A stretch of 64,000 bases of DNA from Acidobacteriota bacterium (GTDB taxonomy: Bacteria; Acidobacteriota; Vicinamibacteria; Marinacidobacterales; Marinacidobacteraceae): the NCBI GenBank assembly GCA_022826825.1, contig JAJDUD010000061.1, forward strand, positions 248,001 to 312,000. The letters run 5' to 3'. Under the pieces are notes generated by a model. The model did no database searches and had not been told where the DNA came from. It worked only from the letters and a program-made list of their open reading frames with translations. Shown piece after piece: positions 39,046 through 63,947 of the stretch. Position 1 is the first letter of the stretch. Each line of letters begins with the position of its first letter. A program made the position numbers and the translations under genes.

Positions 39046-39261
39046 GGAGCGCCGGTGTTCACACCGGCATCGCGGCCAACGGCCGCGAAACTCCCGGCGC
39101 CATCGCGCCCTATCGCGGGGACCCACGACGAGGACGGCGAAACCGACGTTCGCCCGCGCCGGCCACGGCGCCATTCGCGTTGAAGGCGCCGCCACGTTGC
39201 CAAGAAACATCGGGAGTTTCGCCCGCTGCGCGGGCGATGCCGGTGTAAACACCGGCGCTCC
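39046..39261 (+). repeat. REPIN-like element 1 with 50-bp inverted arms
   Basis: The left arm (39046-39095) reads GGAGCGCCGGTGTTCACACC ... GCGAAACTCCC and the right arm (39212-39261) is its near reverse complement, GGGAGTTTCGC ... GGCGCTCC. Inside each arm there is a hairpin (GCCGGTGT/ACACCGGC) and a second one: GGCCAACGGCC on the left, CCCGCTGCGCGGG on the right. The 116-bp core is not conserved. It sits between the TPR gene and the methyltransferase gene. Two more copies occur at 52742-52956 and 63625-63843. Confidence 0.9.
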
Positions 39262-39318
39262 TCACCGTTCCCGTCATCGGGCGGGTTGCATTCTCACAGC
39301 AACCGGTAGGCTGAGCAC

Positions 39319-40158
39319 ATGACCGACATCAACGAGATCGGCGCCACCGCGTTCGTCATCGCGGCCATCCGGGCCGGGGAGCCCGAGAAGCCGCAGCCGC
39401 TCTTCAACGATCCCTACGCCCAGTGGTTCTCGAACGACCGGGCCCGGGCCGTCGCCCGGCAACTGGACGAGGCCTTCCCGCCATCGACCAGCATGGTCCG
39501 CTTCCGCACGCGCTACTTCAACCGGTTCGTCGAGCGCGGGATCGCGGCGGGGGCCCGGCAGGTGGTCCTGCTCGGGGGCGGCTTCGACATGCGCGCCCAT
39601 GTGTTCGCCGACACCGGCGCCCGCTTCTTCGAGGTGGACCAGAAGGCGGTCGTGGAGTTCAAGCGGGTGACGCTGGCGCGGAACGGGATGGAGCAACCGT
39701 CGTCACTCTCCGCCAACTACCTCGACGCCGACGTTCCGAACGGCCTGGCCGATCTCGGCCTCGATCTCACGGCGCCGACGCTGATGGTCTGGGAGGGCAA
39801 CACCATGTACCTGCCCCCCGAGAGCATCATGCCGTTCCTCAACCGCCTCGCCGGGGCCATGACCTCGTTTCGCATCGCCTTCGACTACTTCGCCGCCGAC
39901 CTGCAGCGCCGCGAATTCGAGAACGAGGAAGACCGCCGCCGGCTTGAGGATGTGGAACGGGCGATGGGCGCCGAGTTCCCGACGGGCTTCGCCGACCTGA
40001 AGGTGTTCGAGGAGCAGGCGCCGTACCGCGTGGCCGAGGAGGGCTCGTTCGACAACCTGGCCGAGGAGTTCGGACTGGGCCCAATGGTGGCGAGCTATCC
40101 CGAGGACTGGCGCGAGACGCTCAAGCTGTACCGCTACTGCGTGCTGGAGAGGCGGTAG
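39319..40158 (+). CDS. Class I SAM-dependent methyltransferase (TIGR00027/LCM-like)
   Basis: 279 residues of the leucine carboxyl methyltransferase-like family: ARQVVLLGGGFDMRAHVF, with an extended SAM-binding glycine motif, then ARFFEVDQKAVVEFKR providing the acidic residue for the SAM ribose, and MVWEGNTMYLP later. The N-terminus TAFVIAAIRAGE is family-like. Members modify carboxyl or hydroxyl groups of unknown small molecules. Monocistronic, downstream of the REPIN element. Confidence 0.85.
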   Translation: MTDINEIGATAFVIAAIRAGEPEKPQPLFNDPYAQWFSNDRARAVARQLDEAFPPSTSMVRFRTRYFNRFVERGIAAGARQVVLLGGGFDMRAHVFADTGARFFEVDQKAVVEFKRVTLARNGMEQPSSLSANYLDADVPNGLADLGLDLTAPTLMVWEGNTMYLPPESIMPFLNRLAGAMTSFRIAFDYFAADLQRREFENEEDRRRLEDVERAMGAEFPTGFADLKVFEEQAPYRVAEEGSFDNLAEEFGLGPMVASYPEDWRETLKLYRYCVLERR

Positions 40159-40311
40159 GGCGGTTCTTCGTCATTCGCGAGAGCTGGCCGCGAATGCGGG
40201 GAGCTTGAGCGGTCCGGCGGCGTGAACGCGGGGAGTTCGAGGGATCCGGCATCGCCAGCGCGGACTTCCCTGTGGGTCTGGTAGGTTCGCGTTCCCCCCT
40301 GGAGGTCCCCC

Positions 40312-42003
40312 ATGAAACTCCGCACATCCCGCAGAACTTTCCTCGGCGCCACCGCCGCCGGCATCGCCGGCGCCACGCTCCCCGCCTCCCGCGCCGCAGC
40401 CGCGCCCGACGCCGCGGAACGCCAGCGCCTCATCGAGCTCGCCCACTTCGGCAAGAAGGCCCCGGCCGAGGGCGCCGGCGGGATGGCGATCACCTCGCAT
40501 CCGCTCGCGACCCGCGCCGCCGTCGACATCCTGAAGCGCGGCGGGAACGCCTGCGACGCGGCGCTCGCCGCCTCGATCACCCAGACCGTGGTCGAGCCGC
40601 ACATGACCACCATCACCGGCTGCCTGTCGCAGATGTACTTCGACCAGGCGACCGGCGAGACCACCTACGTCAACGGCAACGTGAACGCGCCGATGGCGCC
40701 GCTTCCCGGCTACGGCCGCCATGACCTGGCCGGTGGGCGCGGGGTCGCGGTGCCGGGCTGGTGGGGCGGCTTCGAGGCGGCCCACGACCGCCACGGCTCG
40801 CTGTCCCGGAAGGACCTGATGGCCGACGCCATCGCCTACGCCCGGGACGGGTTCGAGATGCACCCGTTCCTCTGGGGCGAGGTCTTCATCCAGTCCGACA
40901 AGATCGGCAAAACCACCGCCGGTCGCGACATCTTCTTCGACGGGAACGCCGTCCCGCGCCCCGGCGCGACGCTCTACCAGAAGCAGGCCGCCGACACCCT
41001 CGAGCGGCTCGCCGCGGAAGGGAACGACTACTTCTACCGGGGCGACTTCGCGAAGGAGGTCTGCGACGTGGTCCAGGCGGCGGGCGGCGTCCTGACCCCC
41101 GAGGACTTCGAGCGCTGGGAGCCGCGCTGGCAGGAGCCGGCGTGGGGCTCCTACCGCGACCTCCGGATCGCCGGTTCCCCGCCGCCGGACAACGGCGGCA
41201 CCCACATCATCGAGATGCTCCACATGCTGGAGTTCCTCGACCTCGAGGGCCTCGGGCCGCCGACCGAGTCGGCCGAGAGCCTGCTGCAGATGGTCCGGAT
41301 CAGCCACCTCGTCTACACCGAGGGCGGCCGGCAGAACGATCCCGAGAGCCACCCGCTGCCGCTCGAGACGATCCTCTCGAAGGACTACGCGAAGATGCGG
41401 TTCGACCTGCTCCAGATGGGGCACCCGGTCGCCGACGCTTCCGAGCCGCCCCCGCCCGCCGGCAGCAACCACGTGACGGTGGTGGACGCCGCCGGCAACG
41501 TCTCGACCATCCTGCATTCGTGCATGTCCTACCCCTGGAGCAACGGCCTCTTCGCCGGCGGCGTGAGCATCTGCGCGGCGGGCGCGCATTTCTTCCGGGT
41601 CATGCCGAAGCCCGGCCACCGGATCTCGGCCTACGTGGCGCCGAACATCATCTTCCGGGGCAACCGGCCGGTCATGGCGTCCGGATCGCCGAGCGTGAGC
41701 CTGCTCCAGAACGTCCTGCAGAACAGCCTGAACGTGCTGCAGTTCGGGGTCCCGGTCGGGGACTCGGTGAACCGGCCGCGGTTCGGCGGACCCTCCCTGA
41801 CCGTGCCGGGCGCGGTGCTGATCGAGGCGGACTTCCCGGAGAAGATCCGGGAGAAGGTCGCCGCGCGCGGGATCAACTTCGACATCGTGAACCCCTGGAA
41901 CTGGCACCACGGCTCGTTCGAGGGCATCCACATCGGCGAGGACGGGATCCGCCGCGCCTGCGGCGACCCGCGCCGGTGCAGCATGGCGGAGGCGACGGCG
42001 TGA
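40312..42003 (+). CDS. Tat-exported gamma-glutamyltransferase homologue with Ser nucleophile
   Basis: 563 residues. A Tat signal (RTSRRTFLGATAAG) precedes the Ntn-hydrolase core: RGGNACDAALAAS, then PGWWGGFEAA, and the processing site. The usual nucleophile motif is TTHxSVVD; here it is SNHVTVVD with Ser385 in the nucleophile position and Asn in the next one. GSPSVSLLQNVLQN replaces the usual GSPGG substrate loop. It may be an active enzyme using Ser, or one with a different activity such as cephalosporin/amide hydrolysis. The 3' end overlaps the amidohydrolase start (GTGA). Confidence 0.85.
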   Translation: MKLRTSRRTFLGATAAGIAGATLPASRAAAAPDAAERQRLIELAHFGKKAPAEGAGGMAITSHPLATRAAVDILKRGGNACDAALAASITQTVVEPHMTTITGCLSQMYFDQATGETTYVNGNVNAPMAPLPGYGRHDLAGGRGVAVPGWWGGFEAAHDRHGSLSRKDLMADAIAYARDGFEMHPFLWGEVFIQSDKIGKTTAGRDIFFDGNAVPRPGATLYQKQAADTLERLAAEGNDYFYRGDFAKEVCDVVQAAGGVLTPEDFERWEPRWQEPAWGSYRDLRIAGSPPPDNGGTHIIEMLHMLEFLDLEGLGPPTESAESLLQMVRISHLVYTEGGRQNDPESHPLPLETILSKDYAKMRFDLLQMGHPVADASEPPPPAGSNHVTVVDAAGNVSTILHSCMSYPWSNGLFAGGVSICAAGAHFFRVMPKPGHRISAYVAPNIIFRGNRPVMASGSPSVSLLQNVLQNSLNVLQFGVPVGDSVNRPRFGGPSLTVPGAVLIEADFPEKIREKVAARGINFDIVNPWNWHHGSFEGIHIGEDGIRRACGDPRRCSMAEATA

Positions 42004-43250
42004 CGCGTTTGGTCCTTGTTCTTCTGGCGGCGCTCCTTGTCGGGGCGATGGCCTCGGCGCAGGACACGGTGCTCCGCTGCGGGGCGATCTTCGACGGCGA
42101 CGCGATGGGCGGCGCCGGGGACATCGTCGTGCGCGACGGCCGGATCGTCACCGGACCCCCGGATTCCGGCGACGTGGTGGACCTGTCGGGTTACACTTGC
42201 CTCCCGGGGCTCATCGATCTCCATGCGCACCTGACGATCAACCCGGAGACGCTGACCACGCTCGACATGTACCGGTCGAGCGCCGCGCGGGCGCTCGACG
42301 CGCTGGCGAACGCCCGGAAGATGCTCGACGCCGGGTTCACGACGCTGCGCACCCCCGGCGAATTCGACGGCTACTACGCCACCATCGACCTCAGGAACGC
42401 GATCAACCGCGGCCAGCACGTGGGGCCGCGGCTGCTCGTCGCCCCGCACGCGATCTCGGCCACCGGCGGCCACGGGGACTTCAACAACCTGATGTCCGAT
42501 CTGCACATCGAAACGCCCACCCGGATCGCCGACGGTCCGGAGGGGCTCCGCCTCGAGATCCGGCGCGAGTTCAAGTACGGCGCCGACTGGATCAAGCTGA
42601 TGATGACCGGCGGGGTCATGTCGGCGGGCGACGACCCGAACGTGAGCACCTACACCCTCGAGGAAGTCACCGCCGCGGTCGAGGAGGTCCACCGCCACAA
42701 GAAGAAGATCACCGTCCACGCCCACGGCGCGCCCGGGATCAACACGGCGCTCCGCGCGGGGGTGGACTCCGTCGAGCACGCGACGCTGGTGGACGCGGAG
42801 GGGATCCGGCTCTTCAAGGAGCGCGGCGTCCCCATGGTGCCCACCCTCTACGTCATGAACTACATCCTGGAGGAAGGCGAGGCGATCGGTTTCCCGCAGG
42901 AGAGCATCGAGAAGGCCCGCGCCCTGGTCGCGGAGCGCGACCGGCGGATGGGAATCGCGTTCGAGCAGGGCGTGCCGGTGGCCTTCGGCTCGGACACCAT
43001 CTTCCCGCACGAGACCGCGGCCCGCGAGTTCGCGGTCATGGTGGGGATCGGCCTGAGTCCCACGAATGCTCTGCGGTCAGCGATGACGGTGGCGGCCCGG
43101 ACGCTGGGGCTGGAGGACGAGATCGGCCGGATCGCGGACGGTTACGCGGCGGATGTGATTGCGGTCGAGGGGGATCCGCTGGAGAACATCCGGGTGATGG
43201 AGGATGTGCGGTTCGTGATGCGGGACGGGAGAGTGGTGAAGGCGCCGTAG
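42000..43250 (+). CDS. Exported amidohydrolase (metal-dependent, prolidase-like group)
   Basis: 416 residues from the GTG that overlaps the gamma-glutamyltransferase stop. Signal peptide LVLVLLAALLVGAMASAQ, then LPGLIDLHAHL (HxH motif), DWIKLMMTGG with the carboxylated Lys, VHAHGAPG, VEHATLVD, and late GSDTIFPHE with the catalytic Asp. These mark the amidohydrolase group that includes Xaa-Pro dipeptidases and imidazolonepropionase-like enzymes. With the transpeptidase-like protein it could process gamma-glutamyl or dipeptide compounds outside the cytoplasm. Confidence 0.87.
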   Translation: MTRLVLVLLAALLVGAMASAQDTVLRCGAIFDGDAMGGAGDIVVRDGRIVTGPPDSGDVVDLSGYTCLPGLIDLHAHLTINPETLTTLDMYRSSAARALDALANARKMLDAGFTTLRTPGEFDGYYATIDLRNAINRGQHVGPRLLVAPHAISATGGHGDFNNLMSDLHIETPTRIADGPEGLRLEIRREFKYGADWIKLMMTGGVMSAGDDPNVSTYTLEEVTAAVEEVHRHKKKITVHAHGAPGINTALRAGVDSVEHATLVDAEGIRLFKERGVPMVPTLYVMNYILEEGEAIGFPQESIEKARALVAERDRRMGIAFEQGVPVAFGSDTIFPHETAAREFAVMVGIGLSPTNALRSAMTVAARTLGLEDEIGRIADGYAADVIAVEGDPLENIRVMEDVRFVMRDGRVVKAP

Positions 43251-43255
43251 CGGAG

Positions 43256-43310
43256 CGGAGCGCCGGCCTTCAGGCCGGCACCGCCCGCTGCAGGCGGGCG
43301 AGGGAACGAA
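43256..43310 (+). repeat. REP unit after the amidohydrolase
   Basis: Reads GGAGCGCCGGCCTTCAGGCC then GGCACCGCCCGCTGCAGGCG and GGCGAGGGAAC: two hairpins (GCCGGCCTTCAGGCCGGC and CGCCCGCTGCAGGCGGGCG) joined by ACC. It resembles the other REP units. It begins 6 bp after the stop of the amidohydrolase, so it may also act as a transcription terminator or 3' stabilising hairpin. Confidence 0.75.
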
Positions 43311-43448
43311 TCCCCACCGAGAGTCACGGCACCACCGTCCGGTTGGCGGGCTACAGGTCCCGGCTCGAGCCCGCCGTTCTGGCCGGCGCCGGGCATCCAT
43401 CGACGGTTCGATTCGTGGTCGCTGCGTCCGGGACGCCGCGGTCGTCCG

Positions 43449-44399
43449 CTACCCGGTTTCCTTGGGTCGCGGCCCCAGAAAACGGTCTCCGTCGTAGTGG
43501 ATGAGATGGTCTGGGGCGTCGCAGAGCCACACTTCGGTTTCCCAGGCGATGTTGGTCATGTGCTTGCGGAACTCCGCGAAGTCCGGAAACGCACTGACGT
43601 AGACGGCGTCCGCGGGGCACGCGACCAGCATGGCTTGCAGATCGACCAGCCGGGAGGGCGCAATCGGCCCGTGGGAGGTCACCGCCTCGACGAGGAACAG
43701 CCAATTGCGTTCAGGGTCGTACAGGAGCACGTCGGGCAACTTGTCGTGATCGGTGATCGGGATGCCCAGTTCGGCCAGACGAGGCCTGTCCACGAACAGG
43801 TCCTTCTTTTCCGTGTCGCCCAGATAGAGCAGGTGTGCGCCGGGAGCGAAGCGGGGCGCGAACATTTCCACGACGGCCTTCTGAACCTCGTTGTGCTTGC
43901 CTGGGGAGAGCCGGAGCATTTGACCGTCCGGCAGGGTCACCGGCACCTGCCGGAGGCGCCGATCCTGCGCATAGAGCTCCACCAGGGCGCCTTGCTCGCG
44001 CCGGAAAAGCTCTACGGCGGCGTTCCAGTGGTGGGTCCCATAGCGCTGGATGATGTCCAGAGCGAACTCCGTGACGGCGTAGTGGGCATTGGGGCTGTTC
44101 GTCGGCAAGTCGGGTTCAAACGGGTTGTATTCAGCGATACCGGCCTGGACGAACTGATGTAGCACTTGCCGTCTGAACGTCTCGCGCGTATTCGCCGCGT
44201 ACGTCGTTTCGTAGTGCTCCGCCAGGTAGTCCATGATGCCTTTGGTGACGGTGCATCGTCGTCGCTCAGCCTTCTCCCAGCCAGAATCGGGGGTCAGCCC
44301 GCAGAGCGCGATCAGCGTCATGCCCGCCATCTGATTGTGTTGGGCGGCGGGCATGCCCAGGGCCTCGAGAATCTCCTGCGCCTCCTCGACGCTAGCCAA
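43449..44399 (-). CDS. BsuBI/PstI-family type II restriction endonuclease
   Basis: 316 residues. N-terminal helical DNA-contact domain, then the C-terminal catalytic part: SPGKHNEVQKAVVEMF, YLGDTEKKDLFVD, KLPDVLLYDPERNWLFLVEA and VTSHGPIAPSR. The Asp-Leu-Tyr-x-n-Glu-Ala-Val-Thr-Ser-His-Gly-Pro pattern is the BsuBI/PstI signature. It starts with TTG and overlaps the methyltransferase stop by 8 bp, a common restriction-modification arrangement that delays nuclease synthesis. PstI cuts CTGCAG, but the specificity here cannot be read from the gene. Confidence 0.9.
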   Translation of the reverse strand: MASVEEAQEILEALGMPAAQHNQMAGMTLIALCGLTPDSGWEKAERRRCTVTKGIMDYLAEHYETTYAANTRETFRRQVLHQFVQAGIAEYNPFEPDLPTNSPNAHYAVTEFALDIIQRYGTHHWNAAVELFRREQGALVELYAQDRRLRQVPVTLPDGQMLRLSPGKHNEVQKAVVEMFAPRFAPGAHLLYLGDTEKKDLFVDRPRLAELGIPITDHDKLPDVLLYDPERNWLFLVEAVTSHGPIAPSRLVDLQAMLVACPADAVYVSAFPDFAEFRKHMTNIAWETEVWLCDAPDHLIHYDGDRFLGPRPKETG

Positions 44400-46062
44400 C
44401 GGCTGCCTCCTTCCAGGAAGGAGGAACCATCATCCCGGCGACCAGTGCGTCCACCTCTGATGCGGGGTTGGGCAGGCGCTTCACCCGGCGGCCGAGCGCG
44501 ACGATGGCCTCCGGTGCGGGAAGCGGCATGGCGCGCAGCTCGGTGGCGTTCACCTGGGTGTTGCCGTTGACCGTCCGGAACCAGGTGTCGAGGAGACGGC
44601 TGTTGTAGAGCGCGGCCAGACCCCACGCCTCGTCCTCCGAGAGTTCACCGCCGGGCCGGTGGATGTAGTTGAGATGGTTTTCCAACCCGACCTCCAGACC
44701 TTCGAAGTCGGCGGCGATGAAGGGAGCGGCAGTCAACCGGCGCGGCTCTTCCTTGGCGCTGAAGCGACGGAGCAGGACGTAGTTCCGGGCGGGGAGGAGG
44801 AGCGCCCCGGCGCCCCTGCGCACGATGTACTCCGGCTTGTGTCGACGGAGCGGCCACTTGGCCTCCATGGCCCGCACATGGTTCATCCAGAGAAGCGGCA
44901 CGTGCCTCACGGGGATCTCTCCGTCCCTGGCGATGAACCTGTTTGCTCGAAACGCGACCACCGGCCCGGTCGAGATGTTGAGGCCCAAATCCGAAAGATT
45001 GCTCGGCCAGGCATCCACCACGGCCAAGGCTCTCTCGTCGCCGTCGCAGACGGGCAGCCGGAGGACCTTTTCGGCGGAGTCAAGGTCGAGCGCCGTGCTC
45101 GCTGGAACCTCGCGGACAGTGGATTCACCGAGATCGTCGACCCCGAGGCTCGACGAAATCTCGACGGTGGAGCGGTTCTCCGGCTCCCGGTCCTGGCGGA
45201 TGCCGCACATGATGACGTTTTCCTGCAGCACCGCGTCCCGGCGGAACGCGTCGCGGCGGGAACCGAAGACATGGACCCGGTCCGGGCGAATCAGCTCGAA
45301 GAAAACAGTCCGGAACTGCCGGAAGTACGGACCGGAGGCGAAGCTCCGCGGCGTGATGAACACGAAGTCCCCCCGCGGGCGCAGGAGCGCGGCGCCCGCG
45401 GCCATGAAGAGCGCGTAGATGTTGGGCTGCCCGTGAACCACCTCGGAGAGGGCCGCCGCACGTGGATCGTCCTTGCCGATCTTGAAGTACGGCGGGTTTG
45501 CGATGACGACCTCGAAGGGCTCCGCCGCCGAGCGTCCAGGGAAGAGTCCCCGCGGACGCAGCAGCTTGGCGTTCGCCATGATGAAGTCCGTGGTTTCGAT
45601 CCGGACGGAGACCTTCACTCCGTAGCGCCGGAGGCACCAATCGGCCAGATGGTCGAGGACGGCCCGGAGTGGCGGCAGCAGGTCCCGGTCGATTTCGTAA
45701 GCGACCAGCTCGACGATCCGGGGCTTGGAGCGACGGGAGGCGATGCGCTCCACGGCTGCGCAGCAGAGAATGCCGGTTCCGGCGGCGGGGTCCAGGACGC
45801 GGAGTTGGTGGGACCCGGAGGTGATCCTTCCCGCCATGAAATCGGCCACTGGCGCCGGGGTGAGGAACAGGCCGTGGTCCTTGCGCTCCCGGTCGGTCTT
45901 CTGCCGAATGCACCACTCGCCGATCCGGTCGGCATAGGCTGTGGGTCGCTCGACGGTGCTGGGACCGGGCATCGGCCAGCGCGACTGCCGGGGCGCAACC
46001 GGAGGCGCGGGTTTCCCCCCAGGAATCACCCTCAGCGGGGGCACGTTGCGTCCGGATGCCAC
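44392..46062 (-). CDS. Type II N6-adenine DNA methyltransferase (PstI/Eco57I-like)
   Basis: 556 residues. SAM motif DPAAGTGIL (91-99), catalytic NPPY (189-192) followed by FKIGKDDPRA, and a C-terminal target-recognition part with GPVVAFRANRF and LHxPLLWMNHVR-like sequence. The KDHGLFLTPAPVADFMAG segment is typical of Eco57I-like methylases. Starts at GTG 46062; ATG at codon 31 is an alternative. It should protect the host against the downstream endonuclease. The two genes form a self-contained restriction-modification unit. Confidence 0.9.
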   Translation of the reverse strand: MASGRNVPPLRVIPGGKPAPPVAPRQSRWPMPGPSTVERPTAYADRIGEWCIRQKTDRERKDHGLFLTPAPVADFMAGRITSGSHQLRVLDPAAGTGILCCAAVERIASRRSKPRIVELVAYEIDRDLLPPLRAVLDHLADWCLRRYGVKVSVRIETTDFIMANAKLLRPRGLFPGRSAAEPFEVVIANPPYFKIGKDDPRAAALSEVVHGQPNIYALFMAAGAALLRPRGDFVFITPRSFASGPYFRQFRTVFFELIRPDRVHVFGSRRDAFRRDAVLQENVIMCGIRQDREPENRSTVEISSSLGVDDLGESTVREVPASTALDLDSAEKVLRLPVCDGDERALAVVDAWPSNLSDLGLNISTGPVVAFRANRFIARDGEIPVRHVPLLWMNHVRAMEAKWPLRRHKPEYIVRRGAGALLLPARNYVLLRRFSAKEEPRRLTAAPFIAADFEGLEVGLENHLNYIHRPGGELSEDEAWGLAALYNSRLLDTWFRTVNGNTQVNATELRAMPLPAPEAIVALGRRVKRLPNPASEVDALVAGMMVPPSWKEAAVG

Positions 46063-46210
46063 GACGTTGACGCGGCATAGTCTGCCGCGTTCGCGCTCAC
46101 GGTCAACCTTCGTACTTCAGGGCTCGGCCATCTCGGGTCGATGGCTGCGCCTTGGACCATTTCGGCGGCGGCAACCCGTCCCCGGCCGAGCCCCGGATCA
46201 ATCCACCGGG

Positions 46211-46786: not shown

Positions 46787-46821
46787 CTGGTTGACAACGC
46801 GCACCGGGAGGGAGGTCTGAT

Positions 46822-46858
46822 TTGTCGACAATTGTAACCAATTGCCTACATTTTCGAC
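46822..46858 (-). promoter_or_regulatory. A/T-rich palindromic control region of the AbiEi/restriction unit
   Basis: A conspicuous A/T island in GC-rich DNA. It holds the palindrome TTGTCGACAA (46822-46831) and CAATTG twice, at 46829-46834 and 46839-46844, 10 bp apart, one DNA turn. A minus-strand TACAAT lies inside. Spacing of one helical turn suggests a dimer/tetramer operator; the AbiEi-like protein just downstream is the obvious candidate binder. Confidence 0.5.
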
Positions 46859-46957
46859 CACATCAACCTCAGTGTCGTCGTCGGACGCTCGCGGCCTCAA
46901 CCCCGGAAGGCTGGTTCCGACACGCTTCCAGGCCCGGATTTCGGACCGCCGCGCCAC

Positions 46958-52615: not shown

Positions 52616-52741
52616 GGCTGGGGGCCCTCCGCCGCGCCAGAGCGACAGATACGGCCGGGAACGCCGGCCCCCACCGGGAGAAACGCCCATGCGCGCGTCC
52701 TCCTGCACACCCGACCGGGCATGAAAACGCGGATTCCGCGA

Positions 52742-52956
52742 GGAGCGCCGGTGTTCACACCGGCATCGCCCGCGCAGCGGGCGAAACTCCCGACGTAACT
52801 TCGCGATTGTGCACCGCCTCCAAAGCGAATGGCGCCGCAGCCCCCCCGGGCGAACGTCGCTTCGCCATCCTCGTCGCGGGTCCCCGCGATAAGGCGCGAT
52901 GGCGCCGGGAGTTTCGCGGCCGTTGGCCGCGATGCCGGTGTGAACACCGGCGCTCC
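52742..52956 (-). repeat. REPIN-like element 2, opposite orientation to element 1
   Basis: Inverted arms at 52742-52791 and 52907-52956, both 50 bp. Compared with element 1 the two second hairpins are swapped: here CCCGCGCAGCGGG is on the left and CGGCCGTTGGCCG on the right, so the element lies in reverse. The flanks also match: a CCTCCTGCACACCCGACCGG-like stretch is before it and CCGTCCCCGCCATCGAGCGG after. It separates the TonB receptor from the aminotransferase. Confidence 0.9.
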
Positions 52957-53057
52957 TCGCCGTCCCCGCCATCGAGCGGTTCGCGGGCACGTACACTCGG
53001 GTTCCGGGGGCATCGGTCCGTTGACGCCCTCCCGTTGCCCCGTTCGAGGAGAGACCC

Positions 53058-54335: not shown

Positions 54336-54399
54336 CCCGGCTGCCGATCAGCCCGCCAGCCCGAAGAAGGGACTCCTGCGCGCGCTCCGGATGTCCGGA

Positions 54400-56165: not shown

Positions 56166-56170
56166 GGGAG

Positions 56171-56203
56171 AATAATACATCAAAATCCATTTGATGTATT
56201 ATT
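56171..56203. promoter_or_regulatory. Palindromic operator just upstream of the AlbA_2 gene
   Basis: AATAATACATCAAA-ATCCA-TTTGATGTATTATT: 14 of 14 pairs match, perfect. It starts 6 bp before the gene's ATG (56165 on the minus strand). The 21 bp from 56187 to 56207 match 54416-54436 downstream of the gene, with one difference. Very A/T-rich in a GC-rich setting, as expected for a repressor site. Confidence 0.8.
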
Positions 56204-56304
56204 CATACTATTGCAATCAGCCGCATAGTGGTCCCCGCTGGGGCAGGTGACCCATCTCCGGGTCGAGGCTCGAGGCGGAACCCCGATTCGCCCGCGAATC
56301 CCCG

Positions 56305-57561
56305 TCAGGCGCTGAAACGCGCCAGTCCGAAGAAGGGTTCCTTCTCTCGCTCGCCGAGCGCCTGTCCGGCCAGCATCTCGCCGAGCGACGCGCCCAGCTT
56401 GTAGCCGTGGCCGGATCCCCCGCCGGCGATCCAGACGTTGCCCGCTTCGGGATGGGTGTCCACGATCAGGTTCCCGTCGGCGCTCTCCTCGTACTGGCAG
56501 ACGCGCGCCTCGATCAGCGGCGCTCCCCGGAGCCCCGGGAACCGGTGCTCCATGTACTCACGCGCCTCCCGGATGCCCTTCGCTGACGGCGTCCGGTCGC
56601 CGTCCGTGGGATCGAACGGTGCGCCCCGCCGGTCGTCGGCGATCTTGAAGCCCCGGAAGCGGGTCGCGGGGATGCCGTAGAACGGGCCCTCGATCCAGGT
56701 GGGGAACGCCTCCTCGGTCAGGTCGGAGCGCCCCGCCGGCGGGCCGAAATAGAAGACCTCCTGCCGGGTGGGGCGGACGAGCGGCGGGTCGAACTCCGGG
56801 AAGAGCTTCGCGAGCCACGGCCCGCAGGCAAACACGAACAGGTCGGCCTCGACCGTGCTGCCGTCCGAGAGGCGGATCTCCCGCATCCGGCCGCCGTCCA
56901 TCCCGCCCGGCGCCGCCTCCGCCCGCCGGAAACTGCCGCCCTCCTCCTGGAACTCGCGGAGCACCCGTTCGCAGCCGCGCCGGGCGAGCAGGTAGCCGGC
57001 GTTTCGTTCGAACACGCCGTAGGAGAGGCCCTCGGGGTTGATCTGGGGGAAGCGGCGCGCCAGCTCGTCGCCGTCGAGTTCCTCGACCGGGAGGCCGAGT
57101 TCCCGAAGGATCGGCACCGCGGCCTTCGTGTACTCGTTCTCCCCGCTCCTCATCCGCAGCATGCCGATGGGGAAGAGCAACCGGTCGTTCCAGCGCGCCT
57201 CGTACTCCTTCCAGATCTCGTGCGCCCGGGCCACCATCGCGCTGTAGATCCGCCGCGACCCGTAGGAGGCGCGGATCAGACGGCTCTCGCCTCCCGAGCT
57301 CGCGCGGGCGTTGCCCGCCCCCCAGGCGTCCACGAGCGTCACCTCGGCGCCCGCGCGGCGGAGCCAGAGCGCCGTCCAGCCGCCGAAGGCGCCGGCCCCG
57401 ATCACGGCGGCGCGGACGCCGCTTCCGGTCTGCGGGGGGCTCGCGGCGGGCGCGGCAGGTGGCGTCCCGGTTTCACCGGCGCCGTTGCCGCACGCGCCGA
57501 GCGCGGCGGCGCCGGCGAGTCCGGCGGCAATCGCCTCGCGGCGGGAGATCCGTTTCGTCAT
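56305..57561 (-). CDS. Tat-lipoprotein FAD-dependent oxidase (DAO/sarcosine-oxidase-like), copy 1
   Basis: 418 residues. Signal RISRREAIAAGLAGAAALGAC combines a twin-Arg motif and a lipobox (LGAC), then an acidic/Pro linker. FAD-binding GAGAFGGWTALWL follows, plus RRGCERVLREF and GGGSGHGYKLG near the end, as in monomeric sarcosine/amino acid oxidases. The protein would be anchored outside the cytoplasm and take electrons from N-methyl or amino compounds. Very similar to copy 2, with a 7-bp gap; likely a tandem duplication. Substrate unknown. Confidence 0.85.
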   Translation of the reverse strand: MTKRISRREAIAAGLAGAAALGACGNGAGETGTPPAAPAASPPQTGSGVRAAVIGAGAFGGWTALWLRRAGAEVTLVDAWGAGNARASSGGESRLIRASYGSRRIYSAMVARAHEIWKEYEARWNDRLLFPIGMLRMRSGENEYTKAAVPILRELGLPVEELDGDELARRFPQINPEGLSYGVFERNAGYLLARRGCERVLREFQEEGGSFRRAEAAPGGMDGGRMREIRLSDGSTVEADLFVFACGPWLAKLFPEFDPPLVRPTRQEVFYFGPPAGRSDLTEEAFPTWIEGPFYGIPATRFRGFKIADDRRGAPFDPTDGDRTPSAKGIREAREYMEHRFPGLRGAPLIEARVCQYEESADGNLIVDTHPEAGNVWIAGGGSGHGYKLGASLGEMLAGQALGEREKEPFFGLARFSA

Positions 57562-57568
57562 GACTCCG

Positions 57569-58840
57569 TCACCCGGCCAACCGGCCCAGCTCGAAGAAGG
57601 GCTCCTTCTCGCGCTCGCCGAGCGCCTGTGCGGCCACCATCTCCCCGAGCGCCGGCCCGAGCTTGTAGCCGTGCCCGGACCCGCCGCCGGCGATCCAGGC
57701 GTTCGAGGCTTCGGGATGGGTGTCCACGATGAGATGGCCGTCGGCGCTCTGCTCGTACTGGCAGACGCGCGCTTCGATCAGCGGCGCTCCCCGCATCGCG
57801 GGGAAGCGGCGTTCCATGTAATTCCGCGCTGTCGCGATGGCCTCCGGCGAGGGGGTGCGGTCGCCGTCCGTCGGATCGAACGGGGCGCCGCGCGCGTCGT
57901 CCGCCACCTTGAAACCCCGGAAGTTGCTGCCGGGCACCCCGTAGAAGAGGCTCTCCCCCGTCTCCACCCAGACCGGCAGCTCGGCGTCGGTCAGGTCGGG
58001 GCGGCCCGGCGGGGTGCCGAAATAGAGGATCTCCTGCCGGGTGGGGCTCACGAGCGGCGGGTCGAACCCGGGGAAGAGCTCGGCGAGCCACGGACCGCCC
58101 GCGAACACGAAGATGTCGGCCTCGAGCGTCTCGCCGCTCGCAAGGCGGACGTCCCCGAGGGCTCCGCCCGCCATGGCGCCGGGGGACGCCATCGCCTGCC
58201 GGTATTCACCGCCCTCGGCCAGGAAGCCCTCGAGCACCCGCTGGCAGCCGCGCCGGGCGAGGAGGTAGCCCGCGCTCTTCTCGTAGAGGGTGTACGCGAT
58301 GCCCTCGGGGTCGATCTGGGGAAAGCGGCGGCCGAGTTCCTCGCCGGTGAGCTCCTCGAACGGGACGCCGAGGTCGGCGAGGATCGGGACCGCGTCGGTT
58401 GCGTAGGGATCGACCCCGTCGCTCATCCACAGCGCTCCGGTCTCGAAGAAGAGCCGGTCGCCCCAGCGCTCGCCGGCCTCCTTCCAGCGGGCGAGCGCCC
58501 GGACCACCATCTCCGAGTAGATGCGGTCGGGCCCGTAGGTGGCGCGGATGACCCGGGTCTCGCCGCCGGAGCTGGCGCGGGAGTTCCCCGGGCCCCAGGC
58601 GTCCACCAGGGTGACCTGGGCGCCCCGGCGGAGGAGTTCGAGCGCCGTCCAGCCGCCGAAGGCGCCGGCCCCCACCACGACGGCGCGGACGCCCCGTCCG
58701 GATTGCGAGGCGCCGCTGGCCGGAGTCGGCTCCGCCGTTCCGCCGGGTCCGTTCCCGCAGGCGCCGAGCGCCGCGGCGGCGCCCGCGCCGGCAAGCCCGG
58801 TGGCGATCGCCTCGCGGCGGGAGATCTTCCGGCTCGTCAC
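57569..58840 (-). CDS. Tat-lipoprotein FAD-dependent oxidase (DAO/sarcosine-oxidase-like), copy 2
   Basis: 423 residues from the GTG that overlaps the homoserine-dehydrogenase-like gene stop (GTGA). Signal KISRREAIATGLAGAGAAAALGAC has both twin-Arg and lipobox. Segments GAGAFGGWTALELLRRGAQV, ASSGGETRVIRATYGPDRIY, PTRQEILYFG and VCQYEQSADGHLIVDTHPEA are shared with copy 1, nearly residue for residue in places. The frame is open far upstream, but that part overlaps other genes. A tandem paralogue, perhaps with a different substrate. Confidence 0.85.
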   Translation of the reverse strand: MTSRKISRREAIATGLAGAGAAAALGACGNGPGGTAEPTPASGASQSGRGVRAVVVGAGAFGGWTALELLRRGAQVTLVDAWGPGNSRASSGGETRVIRATYGPDRIYSEMVVRALARWKEAGERWGDRLFFETGALWMSDGVDPYATDAVPILADLGVPFEELTGEELGRRFPQIDPEGIAYTLYEKSAGYLLARRGCQRVLEGFLAEGGEYRQAMASPGAMAGGALGDVRLASGETLEADIFVFAGGPWLAELFPGFDPPLVSPTRQEILYFGTPPGRPDLTDAELPVWVETGESLFYGVPGSNFRGFKVADDARGAPFDPTDGDRTPSPEAIATARNYMERRFPAMRGAPLIEARVCQYEQSADGHLIVDTHPEASNAWIAGGGSGHGYKLGPALGEMVAAQALGEREKEPFFELGRLAG

Positions 58841-59934
58841 GACCGGGCCATCGTAAGGGCTGGCCCCGTCGGCCTCCCGCGGGCGATGTGGACCGCGTCC
58901 CGCAGCACCGCCGCGGCGGTGGGGATCGCGTCGCCCTCGGTGGCGACGAGCCGCTGCGTCGAGAACAGGTCGGTCTCCCACTCGACGGCCATGTCGAGGG
59001 TGCCGATGCTCCCGAAGAAGCTGTCGCGCGGGACCGCGACGGGCGCAACCCGCATCCGGACCGCATCGCCGTCCGGCGCGGCTTCGCCGATCAGGCGGAC
59101 GACCTCGTCCGCGGCGGGCTCGGGGGCCGCCTCGATCCCGGTGCGCTCGACCTCCGCGAGAAACGCCTTCCGGCGCATGACCGTCCGCACCAGGATCAGC
59201 AGCTTGAGCGCGGTGTCGGTGCCGTTCAGGTCGTTCGTGGGGTCGGTCTCGGCGATCCCGCGCCGCTGGGCCTCGGCGACGGCCTCCTCGAGGCTCATCC
59301 CCTCCGCCATCCGGCCCAGCACGAGGTTGCTGGTGCTGTTGAAGACGCCCCGGAGCCGCCGGAACGCGGCTCCCACCAGGTCGCGGGAGCCGGTGTTCAC
59401 GACCGGAAGTCCCCCGCAGACGGTGGCGCTCCACCCGAGGCCCGCTCCGCTCGCGGCGGCCAGCTCCTCTAGTTCGTCGAAGGCGAGCGCGATCGCCGAC
59501 TTGTTGGCGAAGACGACCGACGTGCCCCGGCTGAGCGCCGCCCGTGCGGCCTGAAGCCCGATCCCGCCCGTCTCGACGTCCATCGAGGCCGCGTCGAGCA
59601 GGATGCCCCGAGGCCCGGCGGCGTCGAGCGCCTCCTCGAGGGAGATCGGATCCGCACCGGGGGCCTCCCGGACCTTCTCGCCCCTTGCCTTGGCCGCCAG
59701 CAGGGCGGCTTCCGGGATGCGGCTTCCCGGAGCGTCGGGTCCGACGACGAAGCCGCTGCGGTCGGCGCAGGCCACGACGGGGAACGCCACTCCGTAGCGA
59801 TGGGCGAGACGCCCGGCCTTCCGCCCCAGAATGCCCAGCAGCTCGCGATGGACGTTCCCCATGCCGAGCAGGATGAGGGGACACCGCGCAACCTGTCCGG
59901 CGCCGCCCTCCGGAACTGTTGCCATCTGGCGCAC
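58837..59934 (-). CDS. Homoserine-dehydrogenase-like oxidoreductase
   Basis: 365 residues. After an N-terminal Rossmann start (CPLILLGMGNVHRELL) the sequence has VVFANKSAIALAFDE (catalytic/substrate Lys), GGLPVVNTG, NSTSNLVLG and DPTNDLNGTDTALKLLIL, the homoserine dehydrogenase core. The regulatory ACT domain is missing, as in archaeal-type HSDs. Starts at GTG 59934 or ATG 59925. It sits between a BCCT transporter (2-bp gap) and the FAD oxidases, so it may act on an unusual amino acid rather than in threonine synthesis. Confidence 0.78.
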   Translation of the reverse strand: MRQMATVPEGGAGQVARCPLILLGMGNVHRELLGILGRKAGRLAHRYGVAFPVVACADRSGFVVGPDAPGSRIPEAALLAAKARGEKVREAPGADPISLEEALDAAGPRGILLDAASMDVETGGIGLQAARAALSRGTSVVFANKSAIALAFDELEELAAASGAGLGWSATVCGGLPVVNTGSRDLVGAAFRRLRGVFNSTSNLVLGRMAEGMSLEEAVAEAQRRGIAETDPTNDLNGTDTALKLLILVRTVMRRKAFLAEVERTGIEAAPEPAADEVVRLIGEAAPDGDAVRMRVAPVAVPRDSFFGSIGTLDMAVEWETDLFSTQRLVATEGDAIPTAAAVLRDAVHIARGRPTGPALTMARS

Positions 59935-59935
59935 C

Positions 59936-61516
59936 CTACCCGGCCCGGGCGGCGCGCAGCCCCTTCCAGATGCTGTAGCACAACGCGAGGAGGATCAGCG
60001 TGATGGGGAAGCCGGTGATGAGGGCGGCCGTCTGGAGCGCCACCAGCCCGCCGCTGATGAGCAGGGTGATGGCGATGACCCCCTCGAACGAGGCCCAGAA
60101 GACGCGCTGCGCGACCGGGGCGTCCACCTTGCCGCCGGCGGTGATGGTGTCGATGACCAGGGTCCCGGAGTCGGACGAGGTGACGAAGAAGACCATCACG
60201 AGCACGATGGAAGCGAACGAGGTGACGTCGGCGAGCGGCAGGAGCTCCAGCAGCCGGAAGAGCGCCAGCTCCGGCTGTCCGGCCTGCACCGCGTCGGCCA
60301 TCCCGGCCGCGCCGCCGCGCTGGAGCGACAGCGCCGTTCCGCCGAACGTGCTGAACCACAGCGTTTCGAGCAGCAGCGGGAACAGGAGCATGCAGCCGAC
60401 GAGGCTGCGCACGGTGCGGCCGCGCGAGATCCGGGCGACGAACATCCCCACGCAGGGCGCCCACGAGAGCCACCACGCCCAGTAGAAGGTGGTCCAGCCG
60501 TGCAGGAAGTGGAGGTCTTCGCGCCCCATCCAGTTGCTGAGGGGCCCGATCGCCGCGAGGTAGTGGCCGAAGCTGCCGGCGACCCTGGCGAGCAGCTCGA
60601 GGGTCGGCCCGGCCGCGAACACGAACGCGAGGAGCGCCAGCGCGAGCGCCATGTTGGCCTGGCTCAGGCGCTTGACGCCCTTTTGCATGCCCAGGATGAC
60701 CGATGCCAGCGTGACTGCCGTGATGGCGGCGATCAGCAACACCTCGGTCGCGTGGGTCGGAGGGATCCCGAAGAGGTGGTCCAGCCCCGCCGCCAGTTGC
60801 TCGACGCCCAGGCCGAGCGACGTCGCCAGCCCGAAGATCGTGGCGAAGACGGCGAGGGTGTCCACAACGTGGCCGAACCGGCCCCACACCCGGTCCCCGA
60901 GGACCGGGTAGAACGCCGACCGCAGGCTCATCGGCAATTTGAGGTTGTAGGCGGCGAAGGCGAGCGCGAGCGCCGCCACCGCGTAGATGGCCCACCCGTG
61001 GAGGCCCCAGTGATAGACGGTGGCGGCGATCGCGAGGCCCTCGACGGCCGGGGTGTGCGCGGGAGCGACCCCGAGCGGCGGGTTCCGGAAGTGGGTGACG
61101 GGCTCCGCCACCCCGAAGAACATCAGGCCGATCCCGATGCCGGCCGCGAACAGCATCGCGAACCACGACCAGTTGGAGTACTCCGGCCGGGCGTCCGGAC
61201 CGCCGAGGCGGATCCGGCCGAGGGGCGATGCCAGCAGCGCCAGGCAGAACAGCATGAAGACATTGGCGGCGCCCATGAACATCCAGTCGAAGGTCGAGGT
61301 CAGCCAGGCGTAGAGGGCGTCGAAGAGTCCCGCCGCGATGTCCCGGAACAGGAGCGTTCCGGCCACGAAGGCGATGACCGTGAGGCTGGAGACGACGAAG
61401 ACCGGGTTGTGGATGTCGAGGCCGAAGGGCCGGATGTTGTCGCGGCCGATCAGGACCGCGGGACGCGTCGTAATTTGTCCATGGCCGTCGTCCGCCGTCG
61501 GCCCTCGCGTTTGCAT
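59936..61516 (-). CDS. BCCT family betaine/choline/carnitine transporter
   Basis: 526 residues with about twelve membrane helices. The hallmark glycine helix reads GIGIGLMFFGVAEPV, and the Trp-rich segment HGWTTFYWAWWLSWAPCVGMF supplies the aromatic binding box. Start ATG 61516, chosen because the frame's upstream extension overlaps the WYL gene's leader. Drives uptake of quaternary ammonium compounds with H+ or Na+. It is the first gene of the BCCT-HSD-oxidase-oxidase run, suggesting import and oxidation of betaine-like or N-methylated compounds. Confidence 0.93.
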   Translation of the reverse strand: MQTRGPTADDGHGQITTRPAVLIGRDNIRPFGLDIHNPVFVVSSLTVIAFVAGTLLFRDIAAGLFDALYAWLTSTFDWMFMGAANVFMLFCLALLASPLGRIRLGGPDARPEYSNWSWFAMLFAAGIGIGLMFFGVAEPVTHFRNPPLGVAPAHTPAVEGLAIAATVYHWGLHGWAIYAVAALALAFAAYNLKLPMSLRSAFYPVLGDRVWGRFGHVVDTLAVFATIFGLATSLGLGVEQLAAGLDHLFGIPPTHATEVLLIAAITAVTLASVILGMQKGVKRLSQANMALALALLAFVFAAGPTLELLARVAGSFGHYLAAIGPLSNWMGREDLHFLHGWTTFYWAWWLSWAPCVGMFVARISRGRTVRSLVGCMLLFPLLLETLWFSTFGGTALSLQRGGAAGMADAVQAGQPELALFRLLELLPLADVTSFASIVLVMVFFVTSSDSGTLVIDTITAGGKVDAPVAQRVFWASFEGVIAITLLISGGLVALQTAALITGFPITLILLALCYSIWKGLRAARAG

Positions 61517-61602
61517 CTTCAGACTGGTCGTGTCAGTATTTGTCACACAGGCCGCCGCAAGGAGCCGTCCTCCGGGAACTCGGTGGCCGCAGGGGGAGTC
61601 TA

Positions 61603-62661
61603 ATGGCCAGTTCCATCGCACGCACCGCAACCCTCTTCCGCAAGCTGCTGAGCGGCCGCAGGATCACCTACCGGCAACTCGAAGCGGAAGCGAACATCAA
61701 CCGGCGCACCGCGCTGCGCTGGATCGCGGAGGCGCGCCGCGTCTTCGACCAGGCGCTCCAGAGCGAGACCGGAGATACCGGGGAAAAGGAGTTCTGGCTC
61801 GAGACCCAGGGCGCCCACTGGATGGGCACGCTCAAGCACCAACCCCCCAAACCGGAGGAGATCGCGTCCCTCGACAAGGCCATCCGGATTCTCCGGAAGG
61901 AGGGTCTCGCCCACGAGGAGGACCAACTCACCTCGCTGCGCGGCAAGCTCCACGGGGTGCTGCAGCGGCGGGACCAGGCGACGAAGACCGAGAACGATGT
62001 GGAAGCGATCACCGACGCCTGGGGCATCGCCTCGCGGCCCGGCCCGCATATCCGGGCGGACGAAGACGTGACCGCCGTCCTCCGGGACGCGCTGCTGCGG
62101 GGGCGGAAGGTGGGGTTCCGCTACAAGGGCGGGACTGAGAAGACAGTGGAGCCGGCAGGGCTCCTCTACGGCGGCGCCCCGCGTCTCGTCGGCAAGGAAA
62201 AGGGGAGAGAGCTCGGGCAGTACCGCCTCGACCGGATGAGCGATGTCGAGGTGCTGGCCACGATGAACGAGCTTCCGGAGGACGCCCTCCAGAGCTACCT
62301 CAGCAGCCTCTTCGGCTCCTTCGGCGAACAGCCGGTGAATGTCCGCTGGCGGTTCCATCCGGACGCGCCCGAGCCCGAGAAGTGGACCTTCCACCCCACC
62401 CAGAAGGTCGAGAAGGACGCCGACGGCTTCGTCACGGTGAGTTTCCGGGCGGGCGGCCTCGACGACATGGCCCGCCATGTCATCGGCTGGTGGGACTGGA
62501 TTCAGGTGGACAAGCCAGCCTCGCTCAGGAAGGCCATCCTCAGGATGCGGCTGGCGGGTCTCGCGCAACTGCTCTACGAGTTCGTCGACCAGTCCACGGC
62601 AACCCGGATCTGGAACCTCGCCGAAGAGCTCGGCGCCAACAAGGTGGACTACTGGGAATAG
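61603..62661 (+). CDS. WYL-domain-type transcriptional regulator
   Basis: 352 residues. N-terminal winged-helix-like part (RKLLSGRRITYRQLEAEANINRRTALRWIAEARRVF), then an elongated middle and a WYL-like sensor (HIRADEDVTAVLRDALLRGRKVGFRYKG, VEPAGLLYGGAPRLVG and YRLDRMSDVEVL), then the WCX-type tail ending WIQVDKPASLRKAI. Divergent from the BCCT gene, with an AGGGGGA ribosome site before ATG 61603. Proteins of this kind often control defence or DNA-damage genes; here the BCCT operon is the nearest target. Confidence 0.75.
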   Translation: MASSIARTATLFRKLLSGRRITYRQLEAEANINRRTALRWIAEARRVFDQALQSETGDTGEKEFWLETQGAHWMGTLKHQPPKPEEIASLDKAIRILRKEGLAHEEDQLTSLRGKLHGVLQRRDQATKTENDVEAITDAWGIASRPGPHIRADEDVTAVLRDALLRGRKVGFRYKGGTEKTVEPAGLLYGGAPRLVGKEKGRELGQYRLDRMSDVEVLATMNELPEDALQSYLSSLFGSFGEQPVNVRWRFHPDAPEPEKWTFHPTQKVEKDADGFVTVSFRAGGLDDMARHVIGWWDWIQVDKPASLRKAILRMRLAGLAQLLYEFVDQSTATRIWNLAEELGANKVDYWE

Positions 62662-62664
62662 CCC

Positions 62665-62714
62665 GGAGCGCCGGCCTCCGGCCGGCATCGTCGCCCGCAG
62701 GGCGGCGAAACCCG
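62665..62714 (+). repeat. REP unit intermediate between the two repeat types
   Basis: GGAGCGCCGGCCTCCGGCCG then GCATCGTCGCCCGCAGGGCG and GCGAAACCCG: the first hairpin is that of the 82-bp array (GCCGGCCTCCGGCCGGC), but the flanks GGAGC and ATCG...GCGAAAC are those of the REPIN arms. It links the two families to one ancestor. It follows the WYL gene stop by 3 bp. Confidence 0.8.
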
Positions 62715-62770
62715 CGCTACGCCAGCCTGCGCCACGTTTCGCGGCAGCCGGACGCCGGCGAGGGACTGGT

Positions 62771-63505
62771 TCAGCGCTTTCCCGGCACCATCGGGACGAA
62801 AGCCACGCCTCCGTGGTCCTGGACCTCGATCTCGCCGTCTTCGCCCCGGACCGCAACCACCAGGCGCTGACTCCACGGGTCCGGCCCCACCGGCGCCACC
62901 AGCCGTCCGTCCGGCGCGAGCTGGTCGAGAAGCGCCTGCGGAATCTCCGGCGGGGCCGCGGTGACCACGATCCGATCGAACGGCGCGGCCTCCGGCCAGC
63001 CGAGGTAGCCGTCGCCGACGCGGAGGTTGATGTCCCCGTAGCCGAGCGAGCCGAGCGTCGTCTCCGCGCGGGCCGCGATCCCCGGCAGCAGCTCGATGGA
63101 ATACACCTCGGCCTCGAGTTCGGCGAGCACCGCGGCCTGGTAGCCGGACCCGGTCCCGATCTCCAGCACGCGCTGGCCGGGCGTGATCCGCGCCAGCGAG
63201 CTCATCAGCGCCACGATGTACGGCTGGGAGATCGTCTGTCCCTCGCCGATCGGGAGGGGGCGGTCGGAATAGGCGCGGCGCCGCTCCGAATCGGGAACGA
63301 ACTCCTCCCGCGGCACCGTCTGCAGGGCGCGCAGCACCGCCTCGTCGCGGATGCCCCGGCGCTCGATCTGGCTTCGCACCATGAGGATCCGTTCCGCCCG
63401 GAAGGCGTCCTCCTGTTCCCGGTTGCCGGTGGCTTCGTCGCTGCCGCAGGTTGCCGAGAAGAGGACAAGCGCCGCGAGGGCAGCCGTTCGCGAACCGCTC
63501 CTCAT
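62771..63505 (-). CDS. Exported lipoprotein protein-L-isoaspartate O-methyltransferase
   Basis: 244 residues. The first 21 residues form a signal with a lipobox (FSATCGS), unusual for this enzyme. The core has QSIERRGI-like MVRSQIERRGIRDEAVLRAL, GEGQTISQPYIVALM, LEIGTGSGYQAAVLAEL and a C-terminal DGRLVAPVGPD, so it is a complete PCMT. Start ATG 63505 is fixed by GGGAGGA. It would repair isoaspartyl damage outside the cytoplasm, if SAM is available, otherwise the signal may be a misread. The neighbours give no clue. Confidence 0.87.
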   Translation of the reverse strand: MRSGSRTAALAALVLFSATCGSDEATGNREQEDAFRAERILMVRSQIERRGIRDEAVLRALQTVPREEFVPDSERRRAYSDRPLPIGEGQTISQPYIVALMSSLARITPGQRVLEIGTGSGYQAAVLAELEAEVYSIELLPGIAARAETTLGSLGYGDINLRVGDGYLGWPEAAPFDRIVVTAAPPEIPQALLDQLAPDGRLVAPVGPDPWSQRLVVAVRGEDGEIEVQDHGGVAFVPMVPGKR

Positions 63506-63947
63506 GGAGATTCCTCCCGATCCGCCAAGTCTAAACAGACGGCGGAGTTCGGTTCCAAGGCGTGTGCGCCTCCACGCGGACCAGCCAGACGCACCCCGCC
63601 GGGAATGAAAATGTTGAGGCGCCAGGAGCGCCGGTCTTGAGACCGGCATCGCGGCCAACGGCCGCGAAACTCTCCGCGCCATCGCGCCCCATCGCGGGGA
63701 CCCGAAACAAAGACGGCGAAAGCGGAGTAGGCGCGCGCCGTTGTCGTCGCGCCATTCCCTTTGACGGGGGCGCCATGCGGCGAAAGGAAGCCCAGGAGTT
63801 TCGCCCGCTGCGCGGGCGATGCCGGTCTGAAGACCGGCGCTCCTTCCCGTCCCTGTCATCGGGCGGGTTGCATTTTCACAGCAACTGGCCGGCGTTGCCG
63901 GCCGTGGGCGCCGCCTTCGGGGCTGGAGTGTGATGGAATGACCCGCC
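63506..63947. other. Intergenic region filled by REPIN element 3
   Basis: The 440 bp between the methyltransferase start and the next signal-peptide-like start contain REPIN-like element 3, its conserved flanks, and promoter DNA for the methyltransferase. Short open frames exist but none is convincing. Confidence 0.6.
63625..63843 (+). repeat. REPIN-like element 3 with changed hairpin stem
   Basis: Inverted arms at 63625-63674 and 63794-63843. Orientation is as in element 1 (GGCCAACGGCC on the left, CCCGCTGCGCGGG on the right). The first hairpin is GCCGGTCT-TG-AGACCGGC instead of GCCGGTGT-TC-ACACCGGC; both arms show the change, so pairing is preserved by a double substitution. The flanks again contain ATGAAAA... 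before and CATCGGGCGGGTTGCATT after. Confidence 0.9.

What the first reader, a model, noticed from the sequence alone, without database searches (positions are those of the whole stretch)
39046..63843. REPIN-like elements: three ~220-bp inverted-repeat elements with paired hairpins
Elements at 39046-39261, 52742-52956 and 63625-63843 have 50-bp inverted arms, each with two hairpins, variable cores and partly conserved flanks. Element 2 is reversed relative to the others. Element 3 has a double change in the stem (GTGT/ACAC to GTCT/AGAC) that keeps pairing. This is the architecture of REPINs mobilised by RAYT transposases, but larger.
Basis: partly seen in the sequence, partly recalled or inferred. 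Interest (0 to 1): 0.75.

Follow-up and report, generated by a model that had tools for sequence, protein, structure and literature searches.

The report
REPIN-like hairpin elements with cognate RAYT
The three hairpin elements are real copies of a repeat family with 171 exact end sequences in this uncultured acidobacterium; its probable mobilising enzyme, a RAYT transposase gene, sits between copies of the same repeat, so they are REPIN-like mobile elements, of an unusual build and often nested inside a third repeat.

Summary
Elements at 39046-39261, 52742-52956 and 63625-63843 each have inverted arms made of two hairpins, and element 2 is reversed. The outer arm occurs 171 times in the 3.98-Mb genome (reversed-pattern control 0). 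Among the 100 arms listed, 28 head-out pairs lie within 400 bp (modal spacing 196; about 0.4 expected). Both hairpins covary.

The genome has exactly two Y1 transposase genes, and both are RAYTs by NCBIfam's curated cut-off. RAYT1 is bracketed by two full copies of this element; RAYT2 by arrays of a second REP family (303 exact copies). Element 2 is missing at the orthologous site in two congeners.

Differences from textbook REPINs: the elements are about 217 bp; each arm has two hairpins, the inner one conserved in shape but not sequence; and the head is not GT(A/G)G but GG[A/T]NC, shared by related RAYT loci in other phyla.

The 'partly conserved flanks' are a third repeat (C). It carries REPINs of either family inside and is itself often inserted in REP hairpins, where a 17-bp short form also occurs. 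30 of 40 recovered elements carry C, so C may have been the unit that last moved.

Verdict: new variant of a known kind. No movement was demonstrated.

The parts
39046..39261 (+). REPIN-like element 1 (family A, forward)
39046..39094 (+). element 1 left arm: head GGAGC, outer hairpin 39051-39068, inner hairpin 39072-39086, GAAACTCC
   Evidence: covariation
39213..39261 (-). element 1 right arm: inner hairpin 39221-39235, outer hairpin 39239-39256
   Evidence: z -5.5
38975..39045 (+). left flank of repeat C (diverged); supplies the TGA stop of the upstream ORF at 38995-38997
39262..39306 (+). right flank of repeat C, ending ...TGCATTCTCACAGCAACCGG
52742..52956 (-). REPIN-like element 2 (family A, reversed relative to C)
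52670..52741 (+). left flank of repeat C, beginning CCCACCGGGAGAAACGCCCATG and abutting a REP-B half (GGGAACGCCGGCC, 52657-52669)
52957..52990 (+). degenerate right-flank relic of C, then the promoter-side sequence GTACACTCGG shared with relatives
63625..63843 (+). REPIN-like element 3 (family A, forward; GTCT/AGAC stem)
63592..63624 (+). inner part of C left flank (outer part missing)
63844..63888 (+). right flank of repeat C, ending TGCATTTTCACAGCAACTGG

Best explanation
The elements are REPIN-like non-autonomous elements: two double-hairpin REP arms in inverted, head-out orientation around a core of about 110 bp. RAYT1 (contig C25:86628-87356 of the same genome), a HUH/Y1 enzyme bracketed by the same elements, most likely copied them around the genome. 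Shown here: architecture, copy number, pairing, covariation, an intact RAYT flanked by the family's arms, and presence/absence between congeners. Inferred: that RAYT1 recognises the GGAGC head and outer hairpin on single-stranded DNA, cuts nearby, and transfers the unit. Many copies then spread or were carried inside a second repeat (C) that sits in REP hairpins.
For: 171 exact outer arms, control 0. 28 of the 30 close neighbours among 100 listed arms are in head-out orientation, with modal spacing 196 bp. Hairpin pairs are kept through changes on both sides: outer 75/77 cells Watson-Crick (shuffle mean 63.8, max 69), inner 104/108 (mean 77.4, max 88). There are two Y1_Tnp genes only, both above the NCBIfam REP_Tyr_transpos cut-off, and the only PDB sequence match for RAYT1 is TnpArep 4ER8. 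HVH, Y211, NPVKAG and T67 are invariant. RAYT1 lies between two full family-A elements, with two window-type solo arms beside them. REP arms, mostly inverted on the two sides, flank the RAYT genes of most of the other genus and family genomes. Element 2 is absent at the orthologous intergenic site in G002 and G005, where the upstream gene's terminator runs within 20-35 bp into the shared GTACACTCG sequence; this genome has about 379 bp there.
Against: The head is not GT(A/G)G. The two elements bracketing RAYT1 have a shorter core (190-191 bp in all) than the window's (215-219 bp) and a GCTC/GAGC stem on one side. 30 of 40 recovered elements carry C flanks in a nearly fixed relation (27 forward, 2 reversed), so the last amplification may have been of C plus REPIN instead of REPIN alone. 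Copy number does not track RAYT presence simply: G001 has RAYTs and no exact family-A arm. The RAYT tree does not resolve GGAGC- against GGAAC-associated RAYTs into two clades.
Confidence: 0.8

Rival explanations
1. The unit that last moved is repeat C (about 330 bp, CCCACCGGGAG...CACAGCAACTGG), a REP-targeting miniature element with an unidentified transposase; the REPINs are passengers inside it.
For: 30 of 40 recovered family-A elements have at least one C flank, nearly always in the same orientation. C also carries family-B REPINs. C copies lie inside REP hairpins with CC on both sides. C is conserved across the genus while the REP arms within differ by species.
Against: 10 of 40 elements, including those bracketing RAYT1, have no C. 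No autonomous C with a transposase was found. Only about half of intact C copies sit in recognisable REP hairpins.
Confidence: 0.3
2. MITE-like derivatives of an ordinary IS200/IS605 element, with no RAYT involved.
For: Hairpin ends and HUH enzymes are shared by both groups.
Against: The genome (93% complete) has only two Y1_Tnp genes, and both are RAYTs.
Confidence: 0.05
3. Bidirectional terminators or structured regulatory RNAs fixed by selection, not mobile DNA.
For: Strong hairpins, intergenic positions in the window.
Against: Element 2 follows an existing terminator-like hairpin of the upstream gene and is absent in congeners. No Rfam family matches the window. The inverted pair design with constant spacing is not needed for a terminator.
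Confidence: 0.04

Closest known systems
REPINs (Bertels and Rainey 2011, PMC3116915)
   Same: Inverted REP pairs as the unit, high copy, extragenic in the window, cognate RAYT flanked by the same elements.
   Different: About 217 bp (that paper's null model used 71- and 110-bp segments); arms are double hairpins; head is not GT(A/G)G; many copies sit inside repeat C.
REPtron / RAYT with GTAG-REPs (PMC2817692, PMC6006769, PMC8266576)
   Same: RAYT with HUH, Y and NPVKAG between inverted REPs; one REP family per RAYT.
   Different: Head GG[A/T]NC directly before the stem instead of GT(A/G)G.
TIRtrons / TIRYTs (PMC3733652), including an Acidobacteria group and double-palindromic TIRs
   Same: RAYT-like gene flanked by non-GTAG inverted, partly double-palindromic repeats that form a dispersed family in Acidobacteria.
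   Different: No GGGGWSAS motif; elements organised as regular head-out pairs at high copy.
Insertion sequences that target REPs (PMC1525189; IS621/IS110, ISPsy8)
   Same: Repeat C interrupts REP hairpins at a preferred point, with a 2-bp CC on both sides.
   Different: No transposase found; about 330-bp and 17-bp forms; it carries REPINs as cargo.

Membership tests
REPIN | two REPs in inverted orientation as a unit | tested here: met
REPIN | high copy, dispersed in the genome | tested here: met
   171 exact arms, control 0
REPIN | cognate RAYT in the genome, flanked by the same repeat | tested here: met
REPIN | extragenic location | tested here: inconclusive
   three of three in the window lie between likely genes; not tested genome-wide
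REPIN | moves or excises as a doublet | tested here: inconclusive
   presence/absence at the site of element 2, but the missing block includes C flank; no population reads available
RAYT / TnpA-REP | HUH motif, catalytic Tyr, NP(L/V)(R/K)xG, N-terminal Thr | tested here: met
   H151/H153, Y211, NPVKAG, T67 invariant; NF047646 over cut-off
GTAG-REP superfamily | GT(A/G)G tetranucleotide at the foot of the palindrome | tested here: not met
   foot is CNAG-GAGC in family A and GGAAC in family B; GG[A/T]NC across related RAYT loci
TIRtron/TIRYT | RAYT-like gene flanked by inverted repeats unrelated to GTAG REPs | tested here: met
TIRtron/TIRYT | GGGGWSAS motif in the TIR (shared by some TIRs only) | tested here: not met
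   absent from the arms by direct reading
IS200/IS605 MITE | TnpA of the IS200 type in the genome with the same ends | tested here: not met
   only two Y1_Tnp genes, both RAYTs; genome 93% complete
REP-targeting IS (IS110 etc.) for repeat C | transposase (and, for IS110, bridge RNA) in the element | not tested
   only non-autonomous C copies were seen

The most novel reading that the evidence does not exclude
Repeat C is an independent, non-autonomous mobile element that inserts into REP hairpins and carries REPINs of two different RAYT systems as cargo, so that REPINs and a REP-targeting element nest in and spread each other. The 17-bp form is a minimal copy or an excision footprint.
Probability: 0.35. 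Interest if true: 0.7.

Novelty: new variant of a known kind. Interest (0 to 1): 0.5.

Why it matters
It places a high-copy REPIN/RAYT system, with two co-resident RAYT-REP pairs, in uncultured Acidobacteriota. It shows a RAYT clade whose repeats carry a GG[A/T]NC head in place of GTAG, which gives a direct test of how the head guides cleavage. The inner hairpin, conserved in shape but not sequence, and the nesting with repeat C raise the questions of what RAYT reads besides the outer hairpin, and of what else uses REPs as landing sites.

Tried and rejected
A closing GGAG/CTCC helix of each arm was dropped, because relatives with the same two hairpins lack CTCC. An ungapped stem test of rejoined C insertion sites was weak (10/32 against 12% in shuffles for full C; 5/33 against 15%, so no excess, for the 17-bp form), probably because the base before CC usually differs; the REP halves were read directly instead, which is a judgement by eye. 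A clean split of the RAYT tree by REP head was not obtained. No Rfam family matched. No paper in the held library contained both 'REPIN' and 'Acidobacter' as whole words, which is a narrow search. The RAYT subclass of PMC6006769 was not assigned.

Full report
OBSERVATION. Each is GGAGC + outer hairpin (18 nt) + ATC + inner hairpin (15 nt) + GAAACTCC, a core of about 110 bp, and the mirror arrangement. The long inverted arms are 28-41 nt at 90-97% complementarity. The inner hairpins of the two arms of one element are different sequences (GCGGCC..GGCCGC and GCCCGC..GCGGGC), so when one strand folds they stick out as two side hairpins from a long outer stem (z -6.7 to -9.8 against shuffles). Element 2 has the two inner hairpins in reverse order, hence 'reversed'. 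The GTGT/ACAC to GTCT/AGAC change in element 3 is a family-wide dimorphism.

COPY NUMBER AND PAIRING. The outer-arm pattern occurs 171 times in the window's own genome (3,984,390 bases, 77 contigs), and 0 times when read backwards. Among the first 100 places listed, 30 neighbouring pairs lie within 400 bp: 28 are head-out inverted pairs, most at 192-196 bp, against roughly 0.4 expected from random placement. Some arms without an exact partner have a diverged one at 181-238 bp. Forty distinct full elements were recovered from the fetched loci.

STRUCTURE IS WHAT IS CONSERVED. Among 89 recovered arms there are 11 distinct outer and 18 distinct inner hairpins. Watson-Crick cells are 75 of 77 and 104 of 108; dealing out the 3' letters anew gives means of 63.8 and 77.4 and never reaches the observed values in 500 shuffles. 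This control ignores relatedness, so it is supportive and not a probability. The congener G006 has the same design with other inner hairpins (GTCCCCCGGCGGGGGAC and GCTCCGCACCGCGGAGC; locus L150).

TRANSPOSASE. Pfam Y1_Tnp finds exactly two genes in the genome. Both exceed the NCBIfam cut-off for REP-associated tyrosine transposase. The one PDB sequence match of RAYT1 is TnpArep, 4ER8. The HVH motif, Y211, NPVKAG and T67 are invariant in a five-sequence alignment. RAYT1 (C25:86628-87356, minus strand) stands between two full family-A elements, which are direct repeats with near-identical cores of the 190-191-bp subtype, and next to two solo arms of exactly the window type. RAYT2 (C2:4766-5458) stands between inverted arrays of a second REP family, GGAACGCCG[A/G]CCTCCGG[T/C]CGGC, with a period of about 81 bp; that family has 303 exact copies. 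RAYT genes were found in all nine other genomes searched from the genus and family. Where REPs flank them they begin GGAGC or GGAAC, and related RAYT loci in Verrucomicrobiota, other Acidobacteriota and a gammaproteobacterium have GGAAC, GGACC, GGTGC or GGTAC before a G+C stem. The head of this RAYT clade is therefore GG[A/T]NC, not the GT(A/G)G of the described REPs (PMC2817692, PMC3733652, PMC8266576).

HOST. The nearest named relatives of RAYT1 are MAGs labelled Acidobacteria/Acidobacteriota. The window is thus from an uncultured acidobacteriote of the same genus. Family-A arms were found in six of seven congeners and one of two family mates, and in none of the genomes of the same order and class.

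INSERTION SITES. For element 2, orthologues of the downstream gene were fetched. In G002 and G005 the upstream gene's terminator-like hairpin is followed within 20-35 bp by the shared GTACACTCG sequence. In this genome about 379 bp lie between the same marks, including C-left and the element. For element 1, five congeners have smpB upstream with a single double-hairpin REP before the orthologous gene, while this genome has a different upstream gene. A rearrangement breakpoint therefore coincides with the element, and a clean empty site cannot be read. Element 3 was not tested.

THE FLANKS ARE A THIRD REPEAT. The partly conserved flanks are the ends of a repeat C: left CCCACCGGGAGAAACGCCCATGCGCGCGTCCTCC... 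(82 copies with up to 3 mismatches), right ...TGCATTTTCACAGCAACTGG (69 copies). C contains either a family-A or a family-B REPIN. Of 40 family-A elements, 30 carry at least one C flank: 27 forward, 2 reversed (element 2 is one), 1 undetermined. By direct reading, about half of the 32 intact C copies sit inside REP hairpins, for example GATGCCGGCCGGAGGCC | C | CCGGCGCTCC and GGAACGCCGGCC | C | CCTCCGGTCGGCAC, with CC on both sides. A 17-bp form, CCCACCGGGAGAACTGG, occurs at the same point in REP hairpins; the 19-bp search pattern has 55 matches with up to 2 mismatches, a few of them C ends. Across the genus, C is conserved while the REP arms within it are species-specific. No autonomous C was found. 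That C is itself mobile is inference; insertion sequences that target REPs are known (PMC1525189).

MECHANISM. Most likely, when a REPIN is single-stranded (for example on the lagging strand), RAYT1 recognises the GGAGC head and the outer hairpin, cuts nearby and joins the strand elsewhere, by analogy with E. coli and Stenotrophomonas TnpA-REP, which cut at CT next to the hairpin (PMC8266576). In family A the two bases before GAGC are AG in most arms, which would still allow the A-G guided choice of CT discussed in that paper. This is inference and was not tested. What the inner hairpin does is unknown; its covariation says its shape matters.

VERDICT. As a REPIN it meets architecture, copy number and cognate-RAYT tests, and fails the GT(A/G)G head test, so 'REPIN-like, RAYT-associated' is the safe name. 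Earlier work already reported RAYT-like genes flanked by non-GTAG and double-palindromic repeats, some of them in Acidobacteria (TIRtrons, PMC3733652). This is therefore a new variant of a known kind; the nesting with repeat C is the least expected part.

Noticed in passing
window 31894-32150 (+) and 32316, 32738, 47265, 48755 (-): Copies of the second REP family (TTGGAACGCCG...), four of them in a direct array with a period of about 82 bp, as around RAYT2.
   Followed up: partly
window 43257-43279 (+) and 21639-21661 (-): Solo family-A-like double-hairpin REP and a GGACC-headed REP.
   Followed up: no
L079, L094, L122, L127, L140, L144 and others: 17-bp insert CCCACCGGGAGAACTGG, mostly inside REP hairpins, about 50 places in the genome; looks like a minimal form or footprint of repeat C.
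   Followed up: partly
L125, L058, L086, L077, L126 flanks of C: A further repeat around some C copies (...ATCGCCGCTCGAG | C | GCCGCGTGACTTTCTCCACAGGCTGTTAA...), also seen in congeners.
   Followed up: no
window 38995-38997: The left flank of repeat C supplies the stop codon of the upstream ORF (38236-38997).
   Followed up: no
window 39319 upstream; L255-L259: Gene order changes exactly at element 1: five congeners have smpB upstream, this genome does not.
   Followed up: partly
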